From Bolinopsis microptera (lineage: Eukaryota > Ctenophora > Tentaculata > Lobata > Bolinopsidae), in NCBI RefSeq assembly GCF_026151205.1, contig NC_087079.1, positions 5,227,230 to 5,291,229 of the forward strand: a DNA stretch of 64,000 bases, in the 5' to 3' direction. The position numbers and the translations under genes were made by a program. Every line of letters starts with the position of its first letter. Position 1 is the first letter of the stretch. Below, in pieces: positions 5,390-62,730 of the stretch. Under the pieces are notes generated by a model. That model did not search any database. It saw nothing but the letters and a program-made list of their open reading frames with translations, and was not told the DNA's origin.

Positions 5390-8300
5390 ATATTATATTC
5401 TAATGTACAGCAAATCGAACAAACATATAATACTTACTTACTTTGGGCGATCCTCAATCGAAATCCCATTCACTGTCTGCCTCCACACGTCTCGATCGCA
5501 CATAACAGTTCGAAGGTCGTCTAACTGGAGCCCAGTGTCACGAGCTACTACGTCCAGGAAGGTGAGTGGTCTCCTTCCACGGCCCGATTGGGCAAGTCGC
5601 CAGGGGAGGATAGTGGAGATAACTTGGTCAGAAGCTCTCATGCAATGCCCAGCAAATCTGGAACGCCTCGACGCAACCACTGAGGCAATAGATGGAAGGT
5701 TGCCATAGATCTGCTTGAGGGTTGGATGCTTCTTCCACGAGATGTTCTTGGCCTTCATTAAAAGACGGGTGTAGCATCCGTTGAGGCGTTTCTCAAGCTG
5801 CTTGTTTATGGTCCATGTCTCTGATCCATAGAGCAATACTGGTTCGACACAGGCTCTAAAGAACTTGACTTTCAGTTGTTCGGAAATGCCAGAGGACCAG
5901 ACTTTTTGCAGTTTAATACAGGCTGACCAGGCCATTCCTTTCCTTGTGTTGAAATCCTTTCTACTGTCCGCAATGAAAGAGCCGAGGTATTTAAAGTCAT
6001 CAACCTGTTTAATCTGGCGGCCTGAGATAGAATGTAAGTCGACAGTGTCAGGGATATTGATGGACATGAACTCGGTCTTAGAAGCATTCATAGCAAGACC
6101 AACTTGTGCGGCTGCATTTTCAAGGTCTGTCAGCAGAAGTTGGACTTGCTCTATGGTGTCTGAAATTAAGGCTAAATCATCAGCAAAGTCAAGGTCTGTG
6201 ATTTTGACCGCAGGCACTCTTCGGCTTTTCCTAGGCACGATGGTAAGACCGAATTCGTCACCCATGCAGCTTCTGAGGACATAGTCAAGGACGACGATGA
6301 AGAGAAAGGGTGCTAGAGTGTCCCCTTGAAGAACTCCAATAAGTGTCCTAAAAAAGTCAGTAAGGCCGTCGATGGTCTGGACACGAGAGAACGATGAGTC
6401 ATAAAGAAGCCTGATAGCATCTACAAGTGGAGTAGGGATACCGTAGAGGGAGAGGATGTGGAAAAGGGCATCCCGGTTAATGCTGTCGAACGCTTTCGAA
6501 AAATCGACAAACACAATTGCGGCTGAACGATTTCCGATCTTGCATTCCTCGAGTATACGACGTAGGGCAAGGACCTGTGGGAGTGTGGATCTTCCTCTAC
6601 GGAAACCATTTTGGTTTGGCCGCAAGAGGGGATCAATGAATGGGTAGATCCGGTTGAGGATGAGCTTGTTAAAAACTTTCGCTGCAACCGGTGCCAGTGA
6701 AATGCCACGGTAGTTTCCTGGATTAGTAAGATCACCCTTTTTGGGGATAGGAATGATAGAGGCCGTTTTCCAGGCTTGGGGGATCACACCATCCATGAGT
6801 GCTTTATTACAGAATCCGAGGAGGTTTTCACGTAGCTGGGGAAGCTTCCAGACTGAGGGAGGGATGCTATCTAGACCGGGTGACTTGGAGGACTTGGCGG
6901 ACTTCAGAACCGTGTCGAGTTCTGACATGCTGAAGGATGAGCAGCTGATGGGCAGGGTGTCAGAGACTCGCTGGTTGAAGAAGGGGAGGGTGAGGTCCGG
7001 CGGAGGCTGTTCTGTGCCTAGAAGGGACTTGAAGTGCTCGAACCAGATGTTGAGCCGTTCTTCGGTAGTGCCTCCTGGCACTTTGCAGTATGGCACAGTG
7101 TCGGAAGATGTTAGTTGCCTGATGATGTGCCAGGAACTGCGATGCCTGTGCTCAGGGTTAGTTTTCTCCAGCAGGTCAGTCTGTTGTCGAATGTGCTGTG
7201 AAGTAGCAGCATTATAGGCTTCGTCCAGTTGCTTCTTTGCGTCTTCAAGCTTTTCCTTGGACGAAAAAGAGGGGGAAATCCTGTGACTCAGGGACGCATC
7301 CTTTAGGATATTGCGATGGTGTGCAATATTAGGATCGTTGTAAGGATTTTCCCGTTTCCTCTTTCTCTTTTTTGGCAACACCTTAAGTGCTGTGCTTGTA
7401 ACGCTTTTAACGAGCAGGTCGTAGTCGGACTCGAGCTCTGCTTCCTCTAGGAGTGCACTGTACCTGTTTTTCACTTCCACTGCATACTGGTGTTTCATGT
7501 TGGAATCGTGGATCAGTGGAGTCCAGTCAATGCTCCTAAGAGGGTCCCGTGCTGGAGTTTTGTTGACTCTGTAGCTGGCTTGAACAAAACATGTTACAAT
7601 CCGGTGATCTGAACCGACAGTTTGCATGATGTTGTACGCTTGACAGTTCTTCACACTATTTGCCCACTTCTTCCGCCAGAGTACAAAGTCAATTTGATGC
7701 TTTGCTCTTTTGGGGTCTTCATAGGTCCAAATTTTATTAGCCGGTTTCTGGAAACAGCGGTTAGCAACTATCAGCTGGTGTTGGTCTACCAGATCCAGTA
7801 GTCGTTCACCGTTGTCGTTGGTTGACATATGGTATGTGAAACCGTAGCTATTACTGAGCTTCGCGTTGAAATCACCGCACACTGCTAGCATGTTGTGAGG
7901 AGGTACCTTAGAGATGATCCTGGTTAGAGCGTTGTAGAATGCAGTTTTTTCTTCAATATCACTGCAGTTAGTAGGAGCATAACATGAGAGGACTGTGAGG
8001 CGAGGATTCCCGTTTACATGGAGCAAGATGATTCTGCTATTAACTTTCTCTACAGATAGGAGAGATTTCTGAATTCTAGGAGATAAAAGAAACCCAACAC
8101 CACCAACCGATGCATTAACTGAATTCTTCGTAGCAGAAGCAGTGATGAGCTGATATGATAAGATGTTTTCAATTCTTAGGGATTCTTTGTGGTGTTGGCG
8201 ATGCTCTTGCAAGGAGATAACATCATTATGATGCAGGAAGGCTGAGTGAGCTAACTCCTGTTTACGTGATACAGGGTTGAGAGTCCTACAGTTGAAGGTG

Positions 8301-8800
8301 CTAACCTGAAAAGGGATTTTCCTACGAACTAAAAGGGTAGTAACAGGGTTGCTGCAACTATCAGGACCCACCCCTCCCGGGGGTTTTAGGGAGGGCCCGT
8401 CATACAGGGAGCTAGCTGCCACTGAGTAGTTAGGGGCTTGAACCCTAGTGCTGTTATCGTGTGTCATCATAAAAGTGAGGGGGGATTTTGTCTAATGGCT
8501 AGACATTGTCCAGGCACGGCGCCACTGCAACCTGGATGTGACACTATAATCCAATACCCTCATCAGTAGGTACAATCACGGGTGCAGGTCTTCATAAACC
8601 CGGCTTGTTTTTCGAGGTATGTGCTCCTCTAGATCCGCCGTGTTTAGTTGACCCAGACAGTCGGATTCTTCAATGACATGCCGGTCTAGCAGGGTCACCT
8701 CGTGCAGGATGTGGCTCTTCACCACGCACGGACGGTCTAAGCTCGATCTAGAGTCTAGACCGAGCCCTGGCCCATATTACAGGACCTTGAAACGGATCAG
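5390..8800 (-). mobile_element. RTE-type LINE insertion (approximate limits)
   Basis: The ORF with a ~330-base 5' leader and a very short 3' tail. Limits are guesses: homology-like GC content falls off near 8800 and the AT-rich context begins just below 5430. I found no clear poly-A or target-site duplication. Confidence 0.5.
5438..8470 (-). CDS. RTE-type LINE ORF: AP endonuclease plus reverse transcriptase, apparently intact
   Basis: Uninterrupted 1010-residue ORF of a non-LTR retrotransposon. N-terminal half is an apurinic-like endonuclease: FNCRTLN (about 60), QEHR, SCYAPTN, GDFNAKLS (about 200) and VGSDHRIV (about 287). Reverse transcriptase follows: NYRGISLAPVAAKVFNKLI, NGFRRGRSTLPQ, VFVDFSKAFDSINRDAL, GVLQGDTLAPFLF, the catalytic FADDLALIS (about 760) and YLGS. 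The C-terminal part (GSETWTINKQLEKRLNGCYTR...RFAGHCMR) is the ending usual in RTE-like elements found in cnidarians and other invertebrates. All catalytic motifs are present, which points to recent or ongoing activity. The first Met is followed by about 55 residues without a known domain, so translation may begin a little later. The clade is my judgement by pattern; CR1/L2 is less likely. Confidence 0.93.
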   Translation of the reverse strand: MMTHDNSTRVQAPNYSVAASSLYDGPSLKPPGGVGPDSCSNPVTTLLVRRKIPFQVSTFNCRTLNPVSRKQELAHSAFLHHNDVISLQEHRQHHKESLRIENILSYQLITASATKNSVNASVGGVGFLLSPRIQKSLLSVEKVNSRIILLHVNGNPRLTVLSCYAPTNCSDIEEKTAFYNALTRIISKVPPHNMLAVCGDFNAKLSNSYGFTYHMSTNDNGERLLDLVDQHQLIVANRCFQKPANKIWTYEDPKRAKHQIDFVLWRKKWANSVKNCQAYNIMQTVGSDHRIVTCFVQASYRVNKTPARDPLRSIDWTPLIHDSNMKHQYAVEVKNRYSALLEEAELESDYDLLVKSVTSTALKVLPKKRKRKRENPYNDPNIAHHRNILKDASLSHRISPSFSSKEKLEDAKKQLDEAYNAATSQHIRQQTDLLEKTNPEHRHRSSWHIIRQLTSSDTVPYCKVPGGTTEERLNIWFEHFKSLLGTEQPPPDLTLPFFNQRVSDTLPISCSSFSMSELDTVLKSAKSSKSPGLDSIPPSVWKLPQLRENLLGFCNKALMDGVIPQAWKTASIIPIPKKGDLTNPGNYRGISLAPVAAKVFNKLILNRIYPFIDPLLRPNQNGFRRGRSTLPQVLALRRILEECKIGNRSAAIVFVDFSKAFDSINRDALFHILSLYGIPTPLVDAIRLLYDSSFSRVQTIDGLTDFFRTLIGVLQGDTLAPFLFIVVLDYVLRSCMGDEFGLTIVPRKSRRVPAVKITDLDFADDLALISDTIEQVQLLLTDLENAAAQVGLAMNASKTEFMSINIPDTVDLHSISGRQIKQVDDFKYLGSFIADSRKDFNTRKGMAWSACIKLQKVWSSGISEQLKVKFFRACVEPVLLYGSETWTINKQLEKRLNGCYTRLLMKAKNISWKKHPTLKQIYGNLPSIASVVASRRSRFAGHCMRASDQVISTILPWRLAQSGRGRRPLTFLDVVARDTGLQLDDLRTVMCDRDVWRQTVNGISIEDRPK

Positions 8801-13700: not shown

Positions 13701-16700
13701 TTGTGTGATTTTGTCACACCGTTTCATTGTGTGATTTTATCGCACCGTTTCATTGTGTGATTTTATCACACCGTTTCATTGTGTGATTTTATCACACCGT
13801 TTCATTGTGTGATTTTATCACACCGTTTCATTGTGTGATTTTATTATACCGTTTTCCGGTTTTCTGTGTGATTTCATCGCACTCTTTATTGTGTGATTTC
13901 ATCCCGTTAACCTGCAGTCTCCTCACGTGATTCTGACTGAAGTGTGCTACAACATGTCCTGTCTGGTGTCGGTGAGGGTCTTAGTCCGTGGTAGCACCGT
14001 TATACTGATAAACACCTGATTAATGATTACACGTCATATTACCTTAGTTCTCCCCCCCCCCACTATAACTCCCCCCACTCCCCCTCCCCGTGGTAGCACC
14101 GTTATACTGATAAACACCTGATTAATGATTACACGTCATATTACCTTAGTTCTCCCCCTCCCCCCCCCCACTATAACTCCCCCCCACTCCCCCTCCCCGT
14201 GGTAGCACCGTTATACTGATAAACACCTGATTAATGATTACACGTCATATTACCTTAGTTCTCCCCCCCCCCACTATAACCCCCCCCACTCCCCCTCCCC
14301 GTGGTAGCACCGTTATACTGATAAACACCTGATTAATGATTACACGTCATATTACCTTAGTTCTCCCCCCCCCCCACTATAACTCCCCCCACTCCCCCTC
14401 CCCGTGGTAGCACCGTTATACTGATAAACACCTGATTAATGATTACACGTCATATTACCTTAGTTCTCCCCCCCCCACTATAACTCCCCCCACTCCCCCT
14501 CCCCGTGGTAGCACCGTTATACTGATAAACACCTGATTAATGATTACACGTCATATTACCTTAGTTCTCCCCCTCCCCCCACTATAACTCCCCCCCACTC
14601 CCCCTCCCCGTGGTAGCACCGTTATACTGATAAACACCTGATTAATGATTACACGTCATATTACCTTAGTTCTCCCCCTCCCCCCCCCCACTATAACTCC
14701 CCCCACTCCCCCTCCCCGTGGTAGCACCGTTATACTGATAAACACCTGATTAATTATTACACGTCATATTACCTTAGTTCTCCCCCCCCCACTCCCCCTC
14801 CCCGTGGTAGCACCGTTATACTGATAAACACATGATTAATGATTACACGTCATATATTACCTTAGTTCTCCCCCTCCCCCCCCCCACTATAACTCCCCCC
14901 CACTCCCCCTCCCCGTGGTAGCACCGTTATACTGATAAACACCTGATTAATGATTACACGTCATATATTACCTTAGTTCTCCCCCCCCCCCCCCACTCCC
15001 CCTCCTCGTGGTAGCACCGTTATACTGATAAACACCTGATTAATTATTACACGTCATATTACCTTAGTTCTCCCCCTCCCCCCCACTATAACTCCCCCCA
15101 CTCCCCCTCCCCGTGGTAGCACAGTTATACTGATAAACACCTGATTAATTATTACACGTCATATTACCTTAGTTCTCCCCCTCCCCCCCCACTATAACTC
15201 CCCCCCACTCCCCCTCCCCGTGGTAGCACCGTTATACTGATAAACACCTGATTAATGATTACACGTCATATATTACCTTAGTTCTCCCCCCCCCCCTCAC
15301 TCCCCCTCCTCGTGGTAGCACCGTTATACTGATAAACACCTGATTAATTATTACACGTCATATTACCTTAGTTCTCCCCTCCCCCCCCACTCCCCCTCCC
15401 CGTGGTAGCACCGTTATACTGATAAACACCTGATTAATTATTACACGTCATATTACCTTAGTTCTCCCCCTCCCCCCCACTATAACTCCCCCCCACTCCC
15501 CCTCCCCGTGGTAGCACCGTTATACTGATAAACACCTGATTAATTATTACACGTCATATTACCTTAGTTCTCCCCCTCCCCCCCACTATAACTCCCCCCC
15601 CACTCCCCCTCCCCGTGGTAGCACCGTTATACTGATAAACACATGATTAATTATTACACGTCATATTACATTAGTTCTCCCCCTCCTCCCCCCACTCCCC
15701 CTCCCCGTGGTAGCACCGTTATACTGATAAACACCTGATTAATTATTACACGTCATATTACCTTAGTTCTCCCCCTCCCCCCCCCCCCCACTCCCCCTCC
15801 CCGTGGTAGCACCGTTATACTGATAAACACCTGATTAATGATTACACGTCATATTACATTAGTTCTCCCCCTCCTCCCCCCCACTCCCCCTCCCCTTGGT
15901 AGCACCGTTATACTGATAAACACATGATTAATTATTACACGTCATATTACATTAGTTCTCCCCCTCCTCCCCCCCCCCACTCCCCCTCCCCGTGGTAGCA
16001 CCGTTATACTGATAAACACCTGATTAATTATTACACGTCATATTACCTTAGTTCTCCCCCTCCCCCCCACTATAACTCCCCCCCCCACTCCCCCTCCCCG
16101 TGGTAGCACCGTTATACTGATAAACACCTGATTAATTATTACACGTCATATTACCTTAGTTCTCCCCCCCCCCCCCCCCCCCCACTCCCCCTCCCCGTGG
16201 TAGCACCGTTATACTGATAAACACCTGATTAATTATTACACGTCATATTACCTTAGTTCTCCCCCTCCCCCCCCACTCCCCCTCCCCGTGGTAGCACCGT
16301 TATACTGATAAACACCTGATTAATGATCACACGTCATATTACATTAGTTCTCCCCCTCCTCCCCCCCCACTCCCCCTCCCCGTGGTAGCACCGTTATACT
16401 GATAAACACCTGATTAATGATTACACGTCATATTACATTAGTTCTCCCCCTCCCCCCCCCCCACTATAACTCCCCCCCCACTCCCCCTCCTCGTGGTAGC
16501 ACCGTTATACTGATAAACACATGATTAATTATTACACGTCATATTACCTTAGTTCTCCCCCTCCCCCCACTATAACCCCCCCACTCCCCCTTCTCGTGGT
16601 AGCACCGTTATACTGATAAACACCTGATTAATTATTACACGTCATATTACCTTAGTTCTCCCCCCCCCCCCACTATAACCCCCCCCACTCCCCCTCCCCG

Positions 16701-19700
16701 TGGTAGCACCGTTATACTGATAAACACCTGATTAATGATTACACGTCATATTGTAACCTTAGTTCTCCCCCCCCCCCCCCCACTATAACTCCCCCCACTC
16801 CCCCTCCCCGTGGTAGCACCGTTATACTGATAAACACCTGATTAATGATTACACGTCATATTACATTAGTTCTCCCCCTCCCCCCCACTATAACCCCCCC
16901 CACTCCCCCTCCCCGTGGTAGCACCGTTATACTGATAAACACATGATTCTACTACACGTCATATTACCTTAGTTCTCCCCCTCCTCCCCACTATAACCCC
17001 CCCCCCCCCACTCCCCCTCCCCGTGGTAGCACCGTTATACTGATAAACACCTGATTAATGATTACACGTCATATTACATTAGTTCTCCCCCTCCCCCCCC
17101 CCCACTATAACTCCCCCCCACTCTTCCTCCCCGTGGTAGCACCGTTATACTGATAAACACCTGATTAATTATTACACGTCATATTACCTTAGTTCTCAAA
17201 CATTTGAGCGACAATAAATTTAGGTGGCCCTCTCTTTCAAAATTACCTCGTCTAAAAAAAGTAAAAAATGAATATCCTGCCGAAAGTTTTGGCACATAAA
17301 TCTTTGGGAACTAAGGTTTAATATACTGCTATTAGTGGTGTTAACACCTGATTCTCTGAAATATTATAGTATTTTAGTATGTCTGATCTCTTGTTGGTGA
17401 AGATTAGATTTAACTTTGATTCCGAGATTTGATCCCCCGGTCTTAGTGACCTGATCCCTTGTTCTTAGTAATGTGATCTTTAAAGAATAGGATCGTTCAA
17501 AGAGGAGATCCACTTGTATTAAAACACTTAGCAGAGATTCAATTAATGTTACGGTATCTCTTAAATTGAACCTAATTAGCTTTATTAGTCCTATTAGCCT
17601 GGTCAGCTGCTCTTCACTGTTATATCTATCATTGAAATGATCAGCCTCCTCATTTTTCATTGATCTGAGTTCTGACCCGTCTTTGTCTAGAAATATCATC
17701 TTATATCTCGTACATTTGATATCAATGTTAACCGGGATGTAATTATATCAAATAAGCACAGGTTTTATGTGTCCTCTGATTAACTACAGATTTTCAGGTC
17801 ACGTGATTATTAATTATGACTAATTAATTATGACTAATTAATTATGACTCATTGTCAATACCTGTCTTAGCTCCTGAGAGGTATGATATTGGGAATATTA
17901 ATTGAACTGAATTATATAACTGATGAACTGGTTATTTTTCTCATAAATTTCTAATTTTCTGGTAAAACCCACCCCAAATTTAACCTGTCTCTAATATTAT
18001 AATATTATAATAACCCAGGAAACAGCGTGTGGTATTATAAACGACAGTACGTTCACAGCCTTACTCTCCCTGATAAACACGTGCCCTGAACACAGAGACC
18101 TAGTTATACAGTGTGTTCTTATCTACATTCAGCAGACCCACAACTCCAGACCTGATAAGGTAGGACATCCTTCGTTCGTTCGTTCGTTCGTTCGTTCGTT
18201 CGTTCGTTCGTTCGTTCGTTCGTTCGTTCGTTCGTTCGTTCGTTCGTTCGTTCGTTCGTTCGTTCGTTCGTTCGTTCGTTCGTTCGTTCGTTCGTTCGTT
18301 CGTTCGTTCGTTCGTTCGTTCGTTCGTTCGTTCGTTCGTTCGTTCGTTCGTTCGTTCGTTCGTTCGTTCGTTCGTTCGTTCGTTCGTTCGTTCGTTCGTT
18401 CGTTCGTTGTATTTTGTGTTACTTGATATTAGTTCTGATTTGGAGCGCAGCTAACATATTATGTAATAATGAATATGTCGATTATAATGGTAATCGGTAA
18501 CGCACGTGATTATTATATTTATCATTTAATAATAGTGTAAATTCACACGATCATTCGAGTTAATATTCACAAATAATGATGTTCTTTATTGTTTCAGAGA
18601 CAAATTGACGTCAGATCCCTGCTGAGCATTTACCTTCAGGAAATTTCTCTCAAGTAAGTAAATTAGCAAACAGTTGAATGATTTTAAGCAGATGCCCGCT
18701 TTATTAACAAATATACTAGGGATCTGTTTACAGAATAAGGATGTTTGGAGATATCATGAAGATTGGCAGGGGTTTTGTTTTTTTGACCAAATCTGTTTGC
18801 AATGATCAGATGAATCGAAACAAAACTTGATATCCAAAATTAGCAAGGGATCACAATTGCATCCAAATATAATATTCTCATCAACATTTAAAGTTATCCA
18901 GCACAACATTGACAGATACAATGAGGCACAGAAACTGCTCCGTAGAAGCAACAATATATAAACTGTCACGTTAGGTATTTGATATACATGTTAGGTATTT
19001 GATATAACAGATTCAATACTAAACGTACCTCGGTTTCCTTCCGGAATACTATTGTATTGTTGCCATATCCCCTCGCCTAATATGTCATAACCACATCGAC
19101 TACTCAGTTGTTACTTGTCTTTATTTACTGAATTCTACTATTAAGTTTAAGAGAGTTTAACCGTCCAATAGAAAGCCCGGAATCACACCAATCACAAAGT
19201 GCTCTCAGATATTGCCACGGGCCTACTGTTTGACACAAGAATAAAGATGCAGTTCAGTGCTGTTATTGTATACGACACACATTGGAACTTCGGCACAGAA
19301 CAATGTGGACCATTTCTTTGACCTCAGTGTATAAAATAATTCTATAAAATACTTCTCACAGTATATTAAATAAAATAATTATATGAAATACTTCAGTATA
19401 TTAAATAAAATACTTATATGAAATACTTCAGTATGTTAAATAAAATACTTATATGAAATACTTCAGTATATTATGTAAAATAATTACATGAATAACTGAA
19501 GTACATTGTATTACTCCTTACCTCACAATAATTATTAACAATTGCCTCACCTTGTAATAACCTTTCCGTAACCAATACCACATGGCAGGTAAGAGGAGGT
19601 AAAAGGAGGAGCCATACATTTACATACCAAATATTTAAGCGTACATACTTACTTTGAGTACTTTGAGTACTTTGTACAATACGCAGAGACCACTGAATCA

Positions 19701-28700: not shown

Positions 28701-31700
28701 GAGGTGAACCATGATTTGTTCTGACAAGTGACAGTGATCGACAAGCCAGCTTGTGACCAATCAAAAGCCATGATCACCATCACGTGACAAAGCAAATACA
28801 GTTCACCTGCCCACCCAGAATCCAGATCTTGTGGGTATCTACAATAACGTAAAAATACTTTTACTGCTGTTACTGCAGTTCTCGTAGCGTTAAAATACTT
28901 TAACTATTGATGACGGTAACCATGGTTACACATCATCTACTGTTCGAGAGTTTATCTGGGAGGTTATGCGGAGGATCCGGAGCCAGCCATATCCAACACA
29001 GCCGTGGAGACCATGGTAACACCATTCACGATGAGAAGGAGGGTGAGGCCGACTTTGTAGCCGCTCTTATTAAGGTATCGGGTGAAGTAAAGACCAATAG
29101 GGGAGGCCATTATAGCCACCACTGCACACACAAGGTACAGCCAGATGTCCTCCATGACAAACCAAGTGGTACTACCGTACTCCTCTGGGGGTGGGTTAGC
29201 CAGATAAGTGATAATTCTGACGCATGTGTTTACTGCAGCGATGACCGCTCCGTTTGCTTTTACCTCTACTGGAGGAAACTCGTATACGAAGAAGAATATT
29301 ATAAGGGGTGGACTTCTCACACCAATGAGTCCGGCGAGGAACCCGCTGAATAGACCAGCTACACACATCCAGATTATCTTCGGCCTGATTGGCCAGAAGG
29401 TCTGACTTATATCCTTAATTACCATCTTCATCTTGGTCTTGTTGTCTGTGGACTCCTTCTTTCCTGCCATCTTGCCGTTTTCCAGTAATCCGTCGTGTTC
29501 AGCATGGTTTCCGTTGGTGAGGGGCATGACAACGAGGTCAGTGTTGTGTTTTTCAAGGACGAGCCTCTGCTTCTCACTCCTGTCCCACTCCTTCGGGTTA
29601 TCTTCTCTCATAATGTCGTTTCGTCTTCTGGAGTCCTTCATCGTGAGTTGTCCTGAATTCCTCTATCTGATTCTTGCTGACTTTAGGTTTACTCTTGCTC
29701 ACTGTTTTGTAGCCCAGGTCTTTCATCTCGGAGAAGCATGCAGATTCGATCAGTTTAACGTCCTCGTCAGTTAGTTTACCGGTAGCCTTCCATCCTTCTG
29801 TCTGCTTGGTCTTTGTCTTTTTCTCGGGGGCCCCTCCAGACAGGAACTCATCCAGTTGATCCATCTGTTTACCCTTGTCTCCGACCACAGACTCGTAGTT
29901 AACCCTGTAGACACTGCCCTCTGGAAGTTCAGCTGCGGTTCTCTGCAGTTTAGCCCAGTTCTCTGCTTCAACGTAGACGTGGGAGTTGGCGTTGCTGGTG
30001 CTCTGGATCACGTCTCTGGGGTCTCGGTAAAGGTACACGAACTTGATTCTGCTTCCGAACTGTTTCTTTAGTTCCTCGTGGTATTCACCGGTTGTTTCCG
30101 ATTTGCAAAGCCAGGTGTTGCAGTTGTGAGCCTCTGTGTAGGTGTCCATTACAGCCTCAAACACAGCCGCTAGGGTGCGCTTCTCTCCGCACATCTTCAG
30201 GATGGAGTTGGACTCGAAGGAGAGTGGGTTTTTGCTCGAATCCAACCATGGAAGCGGGTTACTTTCGATGAACTCACACACTGAGTTTATCAGGGTTCTG
30301 AAGTTCTCCTCAGCAGTAAGGTCTCCGAAACTCTCCAGGATGGGAGCGAAGTGTTGGAAGATACCTGCTGCAGGTGGAGAAGCTATCTGTGGGTTCCTGT
30401 CGCTGATCAGCCCATGAAGCCAGTCACTGTCCTCCTTCTGGGATCCTACCACGAAGAACACGTCACTCTTTGCAGTTCCGTTAGTCCCTTCTTCCAGACC
30501 AACCTCTACCATCTCATATTTGCTTTGTTGTTTAGCAGCCCTCCAACCCCTCCATAAGTTAAATGCCTGCCATGCAGCTACCGCTATCGTTACAACTCCT
30601 ACGATTATCTTTAGGACTTCCGAAGGGGTGTAAGCTTGTAGGATTTGTCCGAGAGGAGCTCCAACCAGTTGCATTGGCACCATGGTCAGGATTAGATCCC
30701 ATCTAAAGTTCTTCCGGAGGTTCACGTTCCAGAGGACTATTGGTTGGATGACGGTCATGCCTATGGTCTGGATGAATACCGCATACTTTAGTCCAGGTAG
30801 TGCGCAACACTCTGTTAGTCCTGCTAGTGCACCGATCTGGTATACGAACAGGTAGCAGATGGCCATGCCGAAGCCCATGGCACTGAAGGCCACATTTCCG
30901 AAGAAAGTTGCCGCGGCAAAGTGTGCGATCACAGGAATGTTAAGCATCTTCCTAAGATAATGTTGGGTTAGTAAAATGTATGTCGATCATCGGGAAGATG
31001 TCTAAATGTAACATTTGGAAAATATTAAGATATATTTCGGTTTTAACAGTTTTACTATTTAGTAAAATGTCAAGCAATGGAGAACAGAACTAGACTAATA
31101 GAATGATAAATTATAGAAAATTCTACTGCAACTAAAATCAGGTCATAAACAAATATCGGGTCAGGTAGAAATGTTGTGCTGAGTTTCAGAATTACAATGG
31201 AACTTTGTTGGCCGGGTCACTTTATGCTTTAAATCCAAACTAATCGAAATTTAGGAATTTTTCATCAAATTAGATGACCTAGGAATTAGATTTTCGGTAT
31301 GTAAATGCAAGTAAGCTGGTCCGGCTAGTATAAATTTCAGATTGTGAGGGTCCAAAAATCAGCGTTTCACCTCTGCAGAAAATGCGAGTAGAATGAATGA
31401 ACTGGAGAATTAACGAATTATGCATCAATTACGTACCTGATTAATAAATTGTCTTGATGAGTATGTATTGGATTTCCGAGAATTGGATTTGGAAATGTGA
31501 ACCCTAATTCGATCAGTACCAGTAAAGTGCAACAAGGAGTTAAAACCGCAAAAAATAAACAATGCCGAAACAAAAGCTCTCGCAAACATCACTCTAAAGT
31601 CACGATTACGTAATCACTACGATAAAACAATAGCAACACACATTAACTACCTAACAGAAGCAGATAATTACTTAATAGCTAAACGTAATGCTCCTTACCG

Positions 31701-57511: not shown

Positions 57512-58863
57512 CTATTTGATGGCCAGGAACACAATATAAGTACTGAGACTGCCAAGTACTCTACCAAGTGCCCCATGGACACCCATAATAGTGCCAATAG
57601 TTGCCTTATCTGCACTACTACTCCCGATCTCGGATGCGTACCTCAAACAGAGAGTTAGGATCTGACCGCTGGTTGCTGCGAACAACAACACCAAGATGGA
57701 CGGTGTGATATCATCCAGGAACCAGACCGGAACACCTTCAGAGCGGGGTTGGAGGTTACACATTACCATCAGGAAAACAAAGAGCAGCCGCGCAGTGGTA
57801 TACCAGGGTATAACACGTCGTCCTGGAAACTCCGCGACGCGTGCAAATAGACGTCCTAGTAGATCTCCCACGTTGAACACCAGAAACAAGACCACGGGCA
57901 GGAAATACCGGACTGCCCAGGTTGAACTGGGATCTCGTCCGTAGACGTGAGGGTTGACAGGACTGCGGGAAACATGATGAAGGTGACGTAGAGGACAGAG
58001 AAGCAACAATACCCCTGGGTAAAGGTGTCCTTTATCAGCTGGTACATTGGGGTCCTTTCCGTCTTAGACTCAGTTGACTCCACGTCTGGTGACACTGGAG
58101 ACTTAGAGTCCACCTCCTTGTAACTCTCCTGGTAGTAATGGCAGTGGAACTGGGAGAATAACACCAGGGACACTAACAGAATCACAGCTGCTGCTACAAA
58201 GTACCAGAACCCTGCCTCCACGAAGTCTATCCCGGGGATAGACAAAGTGACGATATTGAGCACTGATGCGATTATCCCTGCCAAGGTCATGCCGATCAGG
58301 AACGCTTCAGTGTAGATAGTGTTCATAGAGGAGGTGACAGCCCACATGGTGCTGATAAACATAGCCCCACCACCGCACATCATACAAAAACATACTTCCG
58401 TCAGGAGGAAGAAGTCTTTAGCCCACAACGTGGAGTCCACTTTAGCCAAGACCGCTGTCAGCACGAACATGCTGAGCATGACTGAGTTTGAGAAATAAAT
58501 CAGTTTTGGGATCTTGATGTAGCGAACTAAGGGTACCGTCAGGAAACTGATACACACGTCCGTGCATATTGCTCCGGTTTGGAAATAGTTCTGGAAGTTT
58601 TCTTCGATGGCCGGAGTGGAGCCGTTGAACTTGGACTCGAAGTAGGAAGTTGCTGTGATGAACATATTCCAGGGTGTTAGAGACGCAATCCCGAACATCA
58701 CGAACATACAGAACAAATGGCCAGACCACGGCTTCGTGTCGGAGTCCGAGATCTGTGTTTTGTCGACGTCCTCGCTGATGGGCTTGTACAATAAGCCGTT
58801 AGACTCCAGAAAGATCGCCTTCCTAGTCTCTCCTAGTCGGGGGGACAGGATCTGTACTTCCAT
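57512..58863 (-). CDS. Equilibrative nucleoside transporter (ENT/SLC29 family), one frameshift
   Basis: Multi-span plasma or organelle membrane carrier for nucleosides. I take the ATG at 58863 (MEVQILSPRLG), which follows a possible acceptor (TTTCATCCAG|GAAATG), so a 5' UTR exon may precede it. The first span carries the ENT hallmark SLTPWNMFITATSYFESKF. Further spans follow up to a long loop (SPVSPDVESTESKTERTPMY) as in ENTs between TM6 and TM7. Near 57940-57960 the frame must shift by -1 to continue into STWAVRYFLPVVLFLVFNVG and DLLGRLFARV, where the TM8 Asp and Arg of ENTs are kept, and on to the C-terminal ALGRVLGSLSTYIVFLAIK. Without the shift the product stops about 40 codons later and loses about five spans. 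Total length about 450 residues is normal. No introns in the coding part. Substrate cannot be told from the sequence. Confidence 0.88.
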
Positions 58864-59160
58864 TTCCTGGATGAAATTTGGCAATTAGTGATAGAGTTTA
58901 AAATTGTAAACTATTCACCTAAAGATAATAATGATAATATATAATAATAAAATCACGATCTCAACACACCAGCATCAAATCTTCGCTAACATTTATGGAT
59001 TAGAGATATAACTAATTAACTACACTTTTGACCTATTTCTCGGCCACTCATATTTTTCAAAATAATAGAGTATTAGTATTACATCATATTGTGTAATATT
59101 ATGTTGAGTCGGTGCAGTAATTACTGATGGGAAAACAAACACAATCATATGAGTTACAAG

Positions 59161-61620: not shown

Positions 61621-62730
61621 AAAATAAAAAAGATCATTCCGCAGCAGTACCTAGGATTATACCGGGATGACGGACTTGCAGTAATTAATAAAACCAACGG
61701 CCAGCGTCTTGATAAAATTAGGAAGCAACTACACTCACTATTCCAAAAAGAAGGCCTAAAAATAACGGTGGATCTCTGTCAGCATTCGGTTGATTTCTTA
61801 GATGTCGTGCTCGACCTAACAGACAAGTCATACAGACCTTATAGGAAACCAAATGACACACCATTGTACATTAACGCAGAATCCAATCATCCTCCCATCA
61901 TATTGAAGAACTTACCCTCAATGATAGAATCACGATTGATAAGCATATCCAGCAACAAGACATGCCTAAATGAAGCCAAAAGCGATTATGAGAAGGCAAT
62001 TAGAGATAGCGGATATAGTCACACCATCGATTATAAAACACCACCGCCTAAAAAGAGAAAGAGATCGCGGAAGAGGAACATCCTATGGTACAATCCCCCA
62101 TTCAGTGCAAACGTTTCAACCAACATCGGAAGAAAGTTCTTCGCTCTTATCGATAAGCATTTCCCGAAAAACCTACCGTTACATAAAATCATCAATAGGA
62201 ATACCGTGAAAATAAGCTATTGCTGCATGCCCAGTTTGGGAAGGATACTCAAAGGGCACAACAAATCAGTCCTAGAGAAACAATCTGAAAAGAAAAAAGC
62301 TCCAGAAAAAGAGTGTAATTGCAGAGACGCCTCGAAGTGCCCCCTCAAAGGACAATGTCTGGCCAAATGCATAGTATACCAAGCAACCGTTAAAACGGCA
62401 TCTAACAAGGAAACGGCCTATATTGGATTGACTGAAAACAGTTTTAAGACACGGTGGTACAATCATCGACAAAGTTTTAAGAATTCTAAGCACAGACTGA
62501 GTACCGAGTTATCAAAATTGATATGGGACCTCAAGGAGAAGATGATTGAATATAGCATAGACTGGAAGATTATTACTAAATCGAAGAAATATAAGGCTGG
62601 AGCGGGGCATTGTGGCCTCTGCTTAGACGAGAAACTATACATACTTAAAACCCCAGGCATTATTAATAAAAGATCAGAAATTATTTCTAAATGTAGGCAC
62701 TCTAGGAAATTCTTAGTTAGACATATTTAG
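61621..62730 (+). pseudogene. Penelope-like element ORF, 5'-truncated: end of reverse transcriptase plus GIY-YIG endonuclease
   Basis: The frame is open from 61621 to a stop at 62728-62730, so it begins upstream of the first in-frame Met. It carries the reverse-transcriptase catalytic motif LGLYRDDGLAVI (YRDD at 61660-61671), then the PLE-typical HSVDFLDVVLDL and YRPYRKPNDTPLYINAESNH, a Lys/Arg-rich KKRKRSRKR linker, a Cys cluster CNCRDASKCPLKGQC and the GIY-YIG nuclease (IVYQATV...TAYIGLTENSFKTRWYNHRQ). The finger and palm motifs of the RT are missing, so it is a dead 5'-truncated copy. PLEs are retroelements of animals and some other eukaryotes; GIY-YIG-bearing ones transpose genome-wide. 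Confidence 0.92.

What the first reader, a model, noticed from the sequence alone, without database searches (positions are those of the whole stretch)
28964..30947. A permease split around a sulfotransferase-like domain
The sequence shows TauE/SafE-like membrane spans, then a ~260-residue soluble region with YLYRDPRDVIQSTS (3'-phosphate motif of PAPS-dependent sulfotransferases), then the second TauE/SafE half. TauE/SafE proteins move sulfite, sulfoacetate or related anions, and sulfotransferases move sulfonate groups. A single protein joining both would be an unusual metabolic fusion. The donor-binding loop reads GSQKEDSDW in place of K/RSGTTW, so it may bind without catalysing, or use another chemistry.
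Basis: partly seen in the sequence, partly recalled or inferred. Interest (0 to 1): 0.8.

Follow-up and report, generated by a model that had tools for sequence, protein, structure and literature searches.

The report
Comb-jelly transporter with built-in sulfotransferase
A comb-jelly genome carries two genes in which a sulfate-adding enzyme sits inside a membrane transporter for sulfur compounds; one copy reads as a single intact protein, while the copy in this window has lost its donor-binding residues and its reading frame changes once.

Summary
On the minus strand, 30947-29598 encodes a TauE/SafE first half plus a PAPS-type sulfotransferase (ST); 29641-28964 encodes the second TauE half in another frame, so the window does not hold one open protein. 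A paralogue on another contig has all three parts in one 702-aa frame (48-49% identical): the fusion is real. The middle is predicted to fold as an ST (Z about 14 to tyrosylprotein, olefin-synthase and CurM STs). It belongs to a bacterial ST family: 54 of 57 loci examined carry a ChrA anion-transporter gene on the same strand (47 within 300 bp), some with PAPS-synthesis genes and cysQ. No transporter fusion appeared among matches in 1,379 sampled prokaryote genomes. The paralogue keeps the donor loop QRSGSN and the PHPPH segment; the window copy has lost both and is probably non-catalytic. Its frame change is best read as one base, assembly error or real lesion. The host is a ctenophore. Best reading: a cytosolic sulfotransferase coupled to an anion transporter, fused in the ctenophore, paired with ChrA in bacteria. 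Substrate and direction are unknown. Our paper searches listed no description of it.

The parts
29598..30947 (-). ORF-A, 449 aa: TauE first half plus sulfotransferase domain
30537..30917 (-). TauE/SafE first half (aa 11-137)
   Evidence: Pfam PF01925 positions 2-114; hydrophobic segments
29694..30476 (-). Sulfotransferase fold (model residues 158-418)
   Evidence: PF13469 2.2e-9; model and VIA-align
30420..30446 (-). Donor (5'-phosphosulfate) loop, reads GSQKEDSDW; bacteria GTQRSGSNL, paralogue GSQRSGSNW
30363..30380 (-). Segment SPPAAG in place of the family's APHPPH
30000..30026 (-). 3'-phosphate motif RDPRDV..S, conserved
29598..29641 (-). Overlap of ORF-A and ORF-B, where the reading frame changes
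28964..29641 (-). ORF-B, 225 aa: linker and TauE second half
29012..29392 (-). TauE/SafE second half (aa 84-210 of ORF-B)
   Evidence: Pfam PF01925 positions 121-237, 2e-11

Best explanation
This is the diverged second copy of a ctenophore transporter-enzyme fusion. A whole PAPS-dependent-type sulfotransferase domain sits in the central loop between the two halves of a TauE/SafE anion transporter. In the intact paralogue the domain most likely faces the cytosol, takes sulfuryl groups from PAPS and makes a sulfated anion that the surrounding transporter moves across the membrane. Bacteria keep the same kind of pairing as adjacent genes (sulfotransferase + ChrA, sometimes with ATP sulfurylase/APS kinase and CysQ). 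The window copy keeps the transporter halves well, but its sulfotransferase has lost the donor loop and the PHPPH segment; it is most likely a non-catalytic copy (pseudoenzyme or decaying), and its frame changes once through assembly error or a real lesion. Shown: architecture, family, intact paralogue, changed site residues, bacterial gene pairing. Inferred: cytosolic side, catalysis, coupling, loss of activity. Unknown: acceptor, direction.
For: Same three-part order in two diverged loci, one in a single 702-aa frame. ST fold and family membership: 36% to a Serratia ST, E 1e-39, and both ctenophore domains group within the bacterial family. Of 57 bacterial loci, 54 have ChrA on the same strand, 47 within 300 bp, 6 within 2.5 kb, 1 at 5.6 kb; ATP sulfurylase and/or APS kinase homologues in 19 (two of them on the other strand) and CysQ in 7. 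ChrA itself is found in 79 of 150 sampled genomes of one phylum, so chance pairing should be rare. Of 63 columns at least 95% identical in 51 bacteria, the paralogue keeps 49 and the window copy 32. Insert flanked by positively charged loop ends.
Against: No substrate, activity, expression or localisation data. TauE stands beside this ST in only 1 of 57 bacterial loci; the usual partner ChrA is a different family, and the Serratia TauE shows no significant similarity to the ctenophore one. The paralogue also departs from the bacterial consensus at 14 of 63 columns, more than any bacterial row in the leave-one-out check (lowest 0.877 kept). The TauE part of the model is of low confidence. Distant ST relatives have no ChrA within about 1.5 kb.
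Confidence: 0.6

Rival explanations
1. The window copy is a plain pseudogene: its ST degraded under relaxed selection and a real one-base lesion now breaks the frame; only the paralogue works.
For: Long end branch of the window ST (1.9 against 0.57), lost site residues, frame change.
Against: Only one frame change and no internal stop in either ORF; TauE halves remain 67% and 61% identical to the paralogue with far fewer nonsynonymous than synonymous changes; a second gene of the window is also split between frames, which points to assembly error.
Confidence: 0.3
2. Programmed +1 frameshifting joins ORF-A and ORF-B during translation.
For: The two ORFs overlap by 44 nt in the right relative frame.
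Against: The paralogue needs none; no recoding signal was sought or found; another gene of the window also changes frame.
Confidence: 0.04
3. The insert does not act on what the carrier moves: it is a sensor or scaffold (for example of PAP/PAPS) that regulates a sulfite or sulfonate exporter.
For: The window copy keeps the fold but not the donor loop; some features such as RDPRDV remain.
Against: The paralogue keeps QRSGSN, PHPPH and RDPRDV; the bacterial relatives stand with PAPS-synthesis genes in some loci.
Confidence: 0.2
4. The joined architecture is an assembly chimera or bacterial contamination.
For: The assembly does hold a raw-read-like duplicate of this region.
Against: Two diverged copies with the same junctions on two contigs of many megabases; bacterial relatives were never seen fused in the sample.
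Confidence: 0.02

Closest known systems
TauE/SafE family (PF01925), sulfite/sulfonate exporters
   Same: Both halves match the Pfam profile in order.
   Different: A 390-430-residue loop with a whole ST domain lies between the halves; known members lack it (recalled).
Bacterial Sulfotransfer_3 family beside ChrA (for example Serratia WP_223498414.1)
   Same: Same ST family: shared GxQRSGSN, APHPPH, NPxPW, RDxRDV in the paralogue.
   Different: Separate proteins of about 330 aa, partner usually ChrA, not TauE.
Tyrosylprotein sulfotransferases, CurM and olefin-synthase STs
   Same: Fold and donor motifs.
   Different: Golgi lumen or polyketide enzymes, no transporter (recalled); 15-20% identity.
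Transporter-enzyme fusions such as SulP-carbonic anhydrase or TauE-rhodanese (recalled, not searched)
   Same: An enzyme acting on the ion or its product is joined to the carrier.
   Different: Another enzyme, and here it lies inside the carrier.

Membership tests
TauE/SafE transporter family | Pfam PF01925 above the curated cut-off | tested here: met
   40.8 and 44.5 bits against 32.6 for the two window ORFs; 80.6 bits for the paralogue
TauE/SafE transporter family | Two membrane halves | tested here: met
   Four hydrophobic segments before and three after the insert, in both copies; fold model too weak to test
TauE/SafE transporter family | Moves sulfite or organosulfonates | not testable with these tools
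   needs transport assays
PAPS-dependent sulfotransferases (PF13469) | Sequence family and fold | tested here: met
   38.4 bits against 27; Z 14.6 to 5wrj
PAPS-dependent sulfotransferases (PF13469) | Donor (5'-phosphosulfate) loop, window copy | tested here: not met
   QKEDSD for QRSGSN; met in the paralogue
PAPS-dependent sulfotransferases (PF13469) | 3'-phosphate motif RDxRDV..S | tested here: met
   kept in both copies
PAPS-dependent sulfotransferases (PF13469) | Transfers sulfate from PAPS | not testable with these tools
   needs an assay
ChrA-paired bacterial sulfotransferase family | Sequence kinship | tested here: met
   E 1e-39; quick tree, long branches
ChrA-paired bacterial sulfotransferase family | ChrA gene beside it | tested here: not met
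   no PF02417 match in G000 (a missing match there is not proof of absence); TauE instead
Intact single-protein fusion gene (window copy) | One open frame over all three parts | tested here: not met
   frame changes once in the overlap; met in the paralogue

The most novel reading that the evidence does not exclude
This ST family is the cytosolic half of a transmembrane sulfation relay. The ST charges a small carrier from PAPS and a dedicated anion transporter exports the sulfate ester; in Bacteroidota a periplasmic arylsulfotransferase encoded next door passes the sulfuryl group on. Ctenophores have welded the first two steps into one membrane protein, perhaps to store or move a sulfated metabolite such as a luciferin sulfate.
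Probability: 0.15. Interest if true: 0.85.

Novelty: new variant of a known kind. Interest (0 to 1): 0.6.

Why it matters
If the coupling is right, this is one animal membrane protein that both makes and moves a sulfated anion. It also gives a likely role to a bacterial ST/ChrA gene pair that recurs in five phyla, and a reason why a 'chromate' transporter is kept beside a sulfotransferase. Both claims can be tested in cultured bacteria and by expressing the ctenophore paralogue.

Tried and rejected
Intron instead of a frame change: the best spliced model scored 1514 (25 nt, GC-AG) and the best GT-AG 1501 (40 nt), against 1518-1542 for 67 one-base models. A mini-intron is disfavoured, not excluded.

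The duplicate in C10 as evidence on the frame: rejected. It covers window 17918-38116 at 88.4%. Mismatches are even over codon positions of ORF-A (29/27/27; ORF-B 17/9/7) and about 6% of coding columns are indels, as in the flanks, so it looks like an unpolished read.

Other STs of the genome as source: 20 of the 42 listed Sulfotransfer_3 places were fetched and read by eye. They look like ordinary Golgi-type or cytosolic STs without a transporter. Two more of the 42 are the fusion loci; the other 20 were not read.

Viral origin: no phage match; viral-contig scans gave one weak ST match and none for the fusion. A first genome-contig scan with the paralogue domain alone found nothing.

Serratia TauE as the direct source: no significant similarity to the ctenophore TauE. 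The second Serratia plasmid's neighbourhood was not read.

The TauE part of the model: pLDDT mostly 29-82, not interpreted. No solved TauE structure was found by sequence for the Serratia protein. The second structure job was not used.

Naming the organism: a first glutamate receptor (L102) was uninformative; the second (L105) worked.

Papers: searched combinations of TauE, sulfite exporter, sulfotransferase, chromate transporter, cnidaria, ctenophore and coelenterazine. No listing described this fusion or the ST-ChrA pair. The library holds only open-licence papers, so this does not show that it is unpublished.

Full report
Observation. On the minus strand, ORF-A (30947-29598, 449 aa) and ORF-B (29641-28964, 225 aa) together make up the finding's span. 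Pfam gives TauE positions 2-114 and Sulfotransfer_3 3-210 in ORF-A, then TauE 121-237 in ORF-B, all above the curated cut-offs. ORF-B lies in another frame and overlaps ORF-A by 44 nt, so the window does not encode one continuous protein.

The fusion is real. The genome (G000, 264.65 Mb, 232 contigs) gave four TauE matches at two loci: this one, and C2:14280843-14282885, where both TauE halves and an ST lie in one open frame. It reads as 702 aa from an ATG (L001). ORF-A and ORF-B are 48% (206/428) and 49% (105/213) identical to it. Nonsynonymous difference is well below synonymous (pN 0.34 against pS 0.82 for A; 0.32 against 0.79 for B), with synonymous sites near saturation. By part, identity is 67% (TauE first half), 43% (ST) and 61% (TauE second half), and 26-27% in the linkers. 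Two diverged loci with the same junctions speak against an assembly chimera.

The frame change. Across it the two proteins align without a gap. One-base models (67) score 1518-1542, against 1514 for the best spliced model. Whether it is error or lesion is open. For error: a nucleoside-transporter gene at 58884-57512 is also split between frames (no intron model was tested there), and contig C10 holds a raw-read-like copy of window 17918-38116. Against error as a general state: ten of 32 glutamate-receptor matches in this genome lie in open frames of 904-989 aa.

The middle domain. The model (read-through protein plus 43 bacterial relatives) is confident over most of the ST region and poor elsewhere (mean pLDDT 68.8, pTM 0.54). 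Residues 158-418 match tyrosylprotein ST-1 (Z 14.6, rmsd 4.2, 212 residues), the Synechococcus olefin-synthase ST (14.1, 3.4, 199) and CurM ST (13.8, 4.1, 216). Foldseek's first ten are all STs, E 7e-5 to 9e-4. A profile finds the same families by sequence (CurM 1.7e-21). Hydrophobic segments and charged loops suggest that the insert is on the inner side, where PAPS is made (recalled); this is an inference from the positive-inside rule.

The family. tblastn against plasmids found two Serratia records (36% identity over paralogue aa 158-494, E 1e-39). In the one read, the order is ATP sulfurylase/APS kinase, TauE/SafE, ST, CysQ, ChrA. A scan of bacterial genomes gave 56 loci. With Serratia (57 loci), iterated profiles found ChrA in 54, ATP sulfurylase and/or APS kinase homologues in 19 (two on the other strand), CysQ in 7 and TauE in 1, Serratia itself, whose TauE was the only seed. 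All 54 nearest ChrA genes are on the ST's strand: 47 within 300 bp, 6 within 2.5 kb, 1 at 5.6 kb. In two of the three loci without ChrA (L052, L056) the ST lies near a contig end. As a yardstick, 79 of 150 genomes of one phylum have any ChrA match, so pairing by chance should be rare; the loci are not independent of each other by descent. Among independently drawn genomes, two close members (L082, L097) also have ChrA; more distant ones show none within about 1.5 kb. Ten loci, all Bacteroidota by title, carry one more gene cluster (c7) just before ChrA; the one member tested is an arylsulfotransferase (PF05935, 9.5e-33). Pfam confirmed ChrA in the four loci tested.

No fusion seen in bacteria. 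In 395, 292, 398 and 294 sampled genomes of four phyla (1,379 in all, centres included), 29 (E <= 1e-20), 3, 4 and 6 (E <= 1e-40) had a match. The longest open frame holding one was 517 aa, too short for an ST plus TauE. The ctenophore genome gave no ChrA match (not proof of absence).

What the two copies keep. Alignment A2 has 53 rows: both ctenophore domains, Serratia, and 50 of the 56 bacterial loci. L034, L035, L039 and L050 (near-copies), L074 (broken) and L079 (partial) were left out. Of 63 columns at least 95% identical in the 51 bacteria, the paralogue keeps 49 and the window copy 32; the lowest bacterial row keeps 0.877 in a leave-one-out check, so the paralogue has diverged too. The paralogue keeps QRSGSN, APHPPH and RDPRDV. 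The window copy reads QKEDSD and SPPAAG, has a 31-residue gap against the paralogue over its KSVLWRN stretch, but keeps RDPRDV. In the alignment to tyrosylprotein STs the PHPPH segment falls on their GEETR stretch, which holds the catalytic glutamate (recalled). The tree groups the two ctenophore rows (99*) inside a 58-row set (95*) that holds all rows labelled ChrA-linked and three distant rows; the label was given to all A2 bacteria, three of which showed no ChrA. It is a quick tree, midpoint-rooted, with warnings about long branches; end branches are 1.9 (window) and 0.57 (paralogue).

Host. A receptor of this genome has ML032222a iGluR as its best solved relative (4yki, E 2.7e-121; that ML stands for Mnemiopsis leidyi is recalled). 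Contigs of 15-26 Mb fit the 13-chromosome lobate ctenophore Bolinopsis microptera, whose project used PacBio CLR libraries among others (passages of PMC10232365). A ctenophore is well supported; the species is likely, not proven.

Mechanism. The most economical reading is coupling: a cytosolic PAPS-dependent ST whose product is an anion moved by the attached carrier. Bacteria show the like in trans with ChrA, sometimes with genes that make PAPS and destroy PAP. Export seems likelier than import, because TauE and ChrA are known mainly as exporters (recalled) and because an arylsulfotransferase, usually periplasmic (recalled), stands next door in Bacteroidota. A luciferin sulfate is only a guess: Renilla has a coelenterazine sulfotransferase (search listing with the start of the abstract, PMC9576082), and no link to this family was tested.

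Verdict. A real transporter-sulfotransferase fusion that our searches found undescribed. The window holds its degenerate, frame-changed copy; the intact copy elsewhere probably carries the function. Interest is moderate to high, limited by the lack of a substrate and of data from other ctenophores.

Noticed in passing
L023-L079, e.g. L061:3227-6984: A recurring bacterial gene pair, sulfotransferase plus ChrA, in five phyla; in Bacteroidota with an arylsulfotransferase gene just before ChrA, in some loci with ATP sulfurylase/APS kinase and CysQ. A phosphonate-type binding protein (two members tested by Pfam) belongs to a cluster seen in 20 loci.
   Followed up: partly
G000:C10 about 14147000-14166970: A stretch of at least 20 kb looks like an unpolished read of window 17918-38116 (88.4%, even errors), probably an assembly artefact.
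   Followed up: yes
window 57512-58884, minus strand: An equilibrative nucleoside transporter gene (PF01733) split between two frames.
   Followed up: partly
window 13986-17197 and 18171-18408: A C-rich tandem array with a unit of about 105 bp and a run of 59 TTCG units.
   Followed up: no
window 5438-8491 (minus) and 61621-62730 (plus): A 1017-aa ORF that reads like a LINE endonuclease-reverse transcriptase and an ORF that resembles a Penelope-like element's end; both judged by eye only.
   Followed up: no
G000, glutamate-receptor and sulfotransferase places: Many long genes of this animal lie in single open frames of 500-990 aa, that is, without introns over most of the protein.
   Followed up: no
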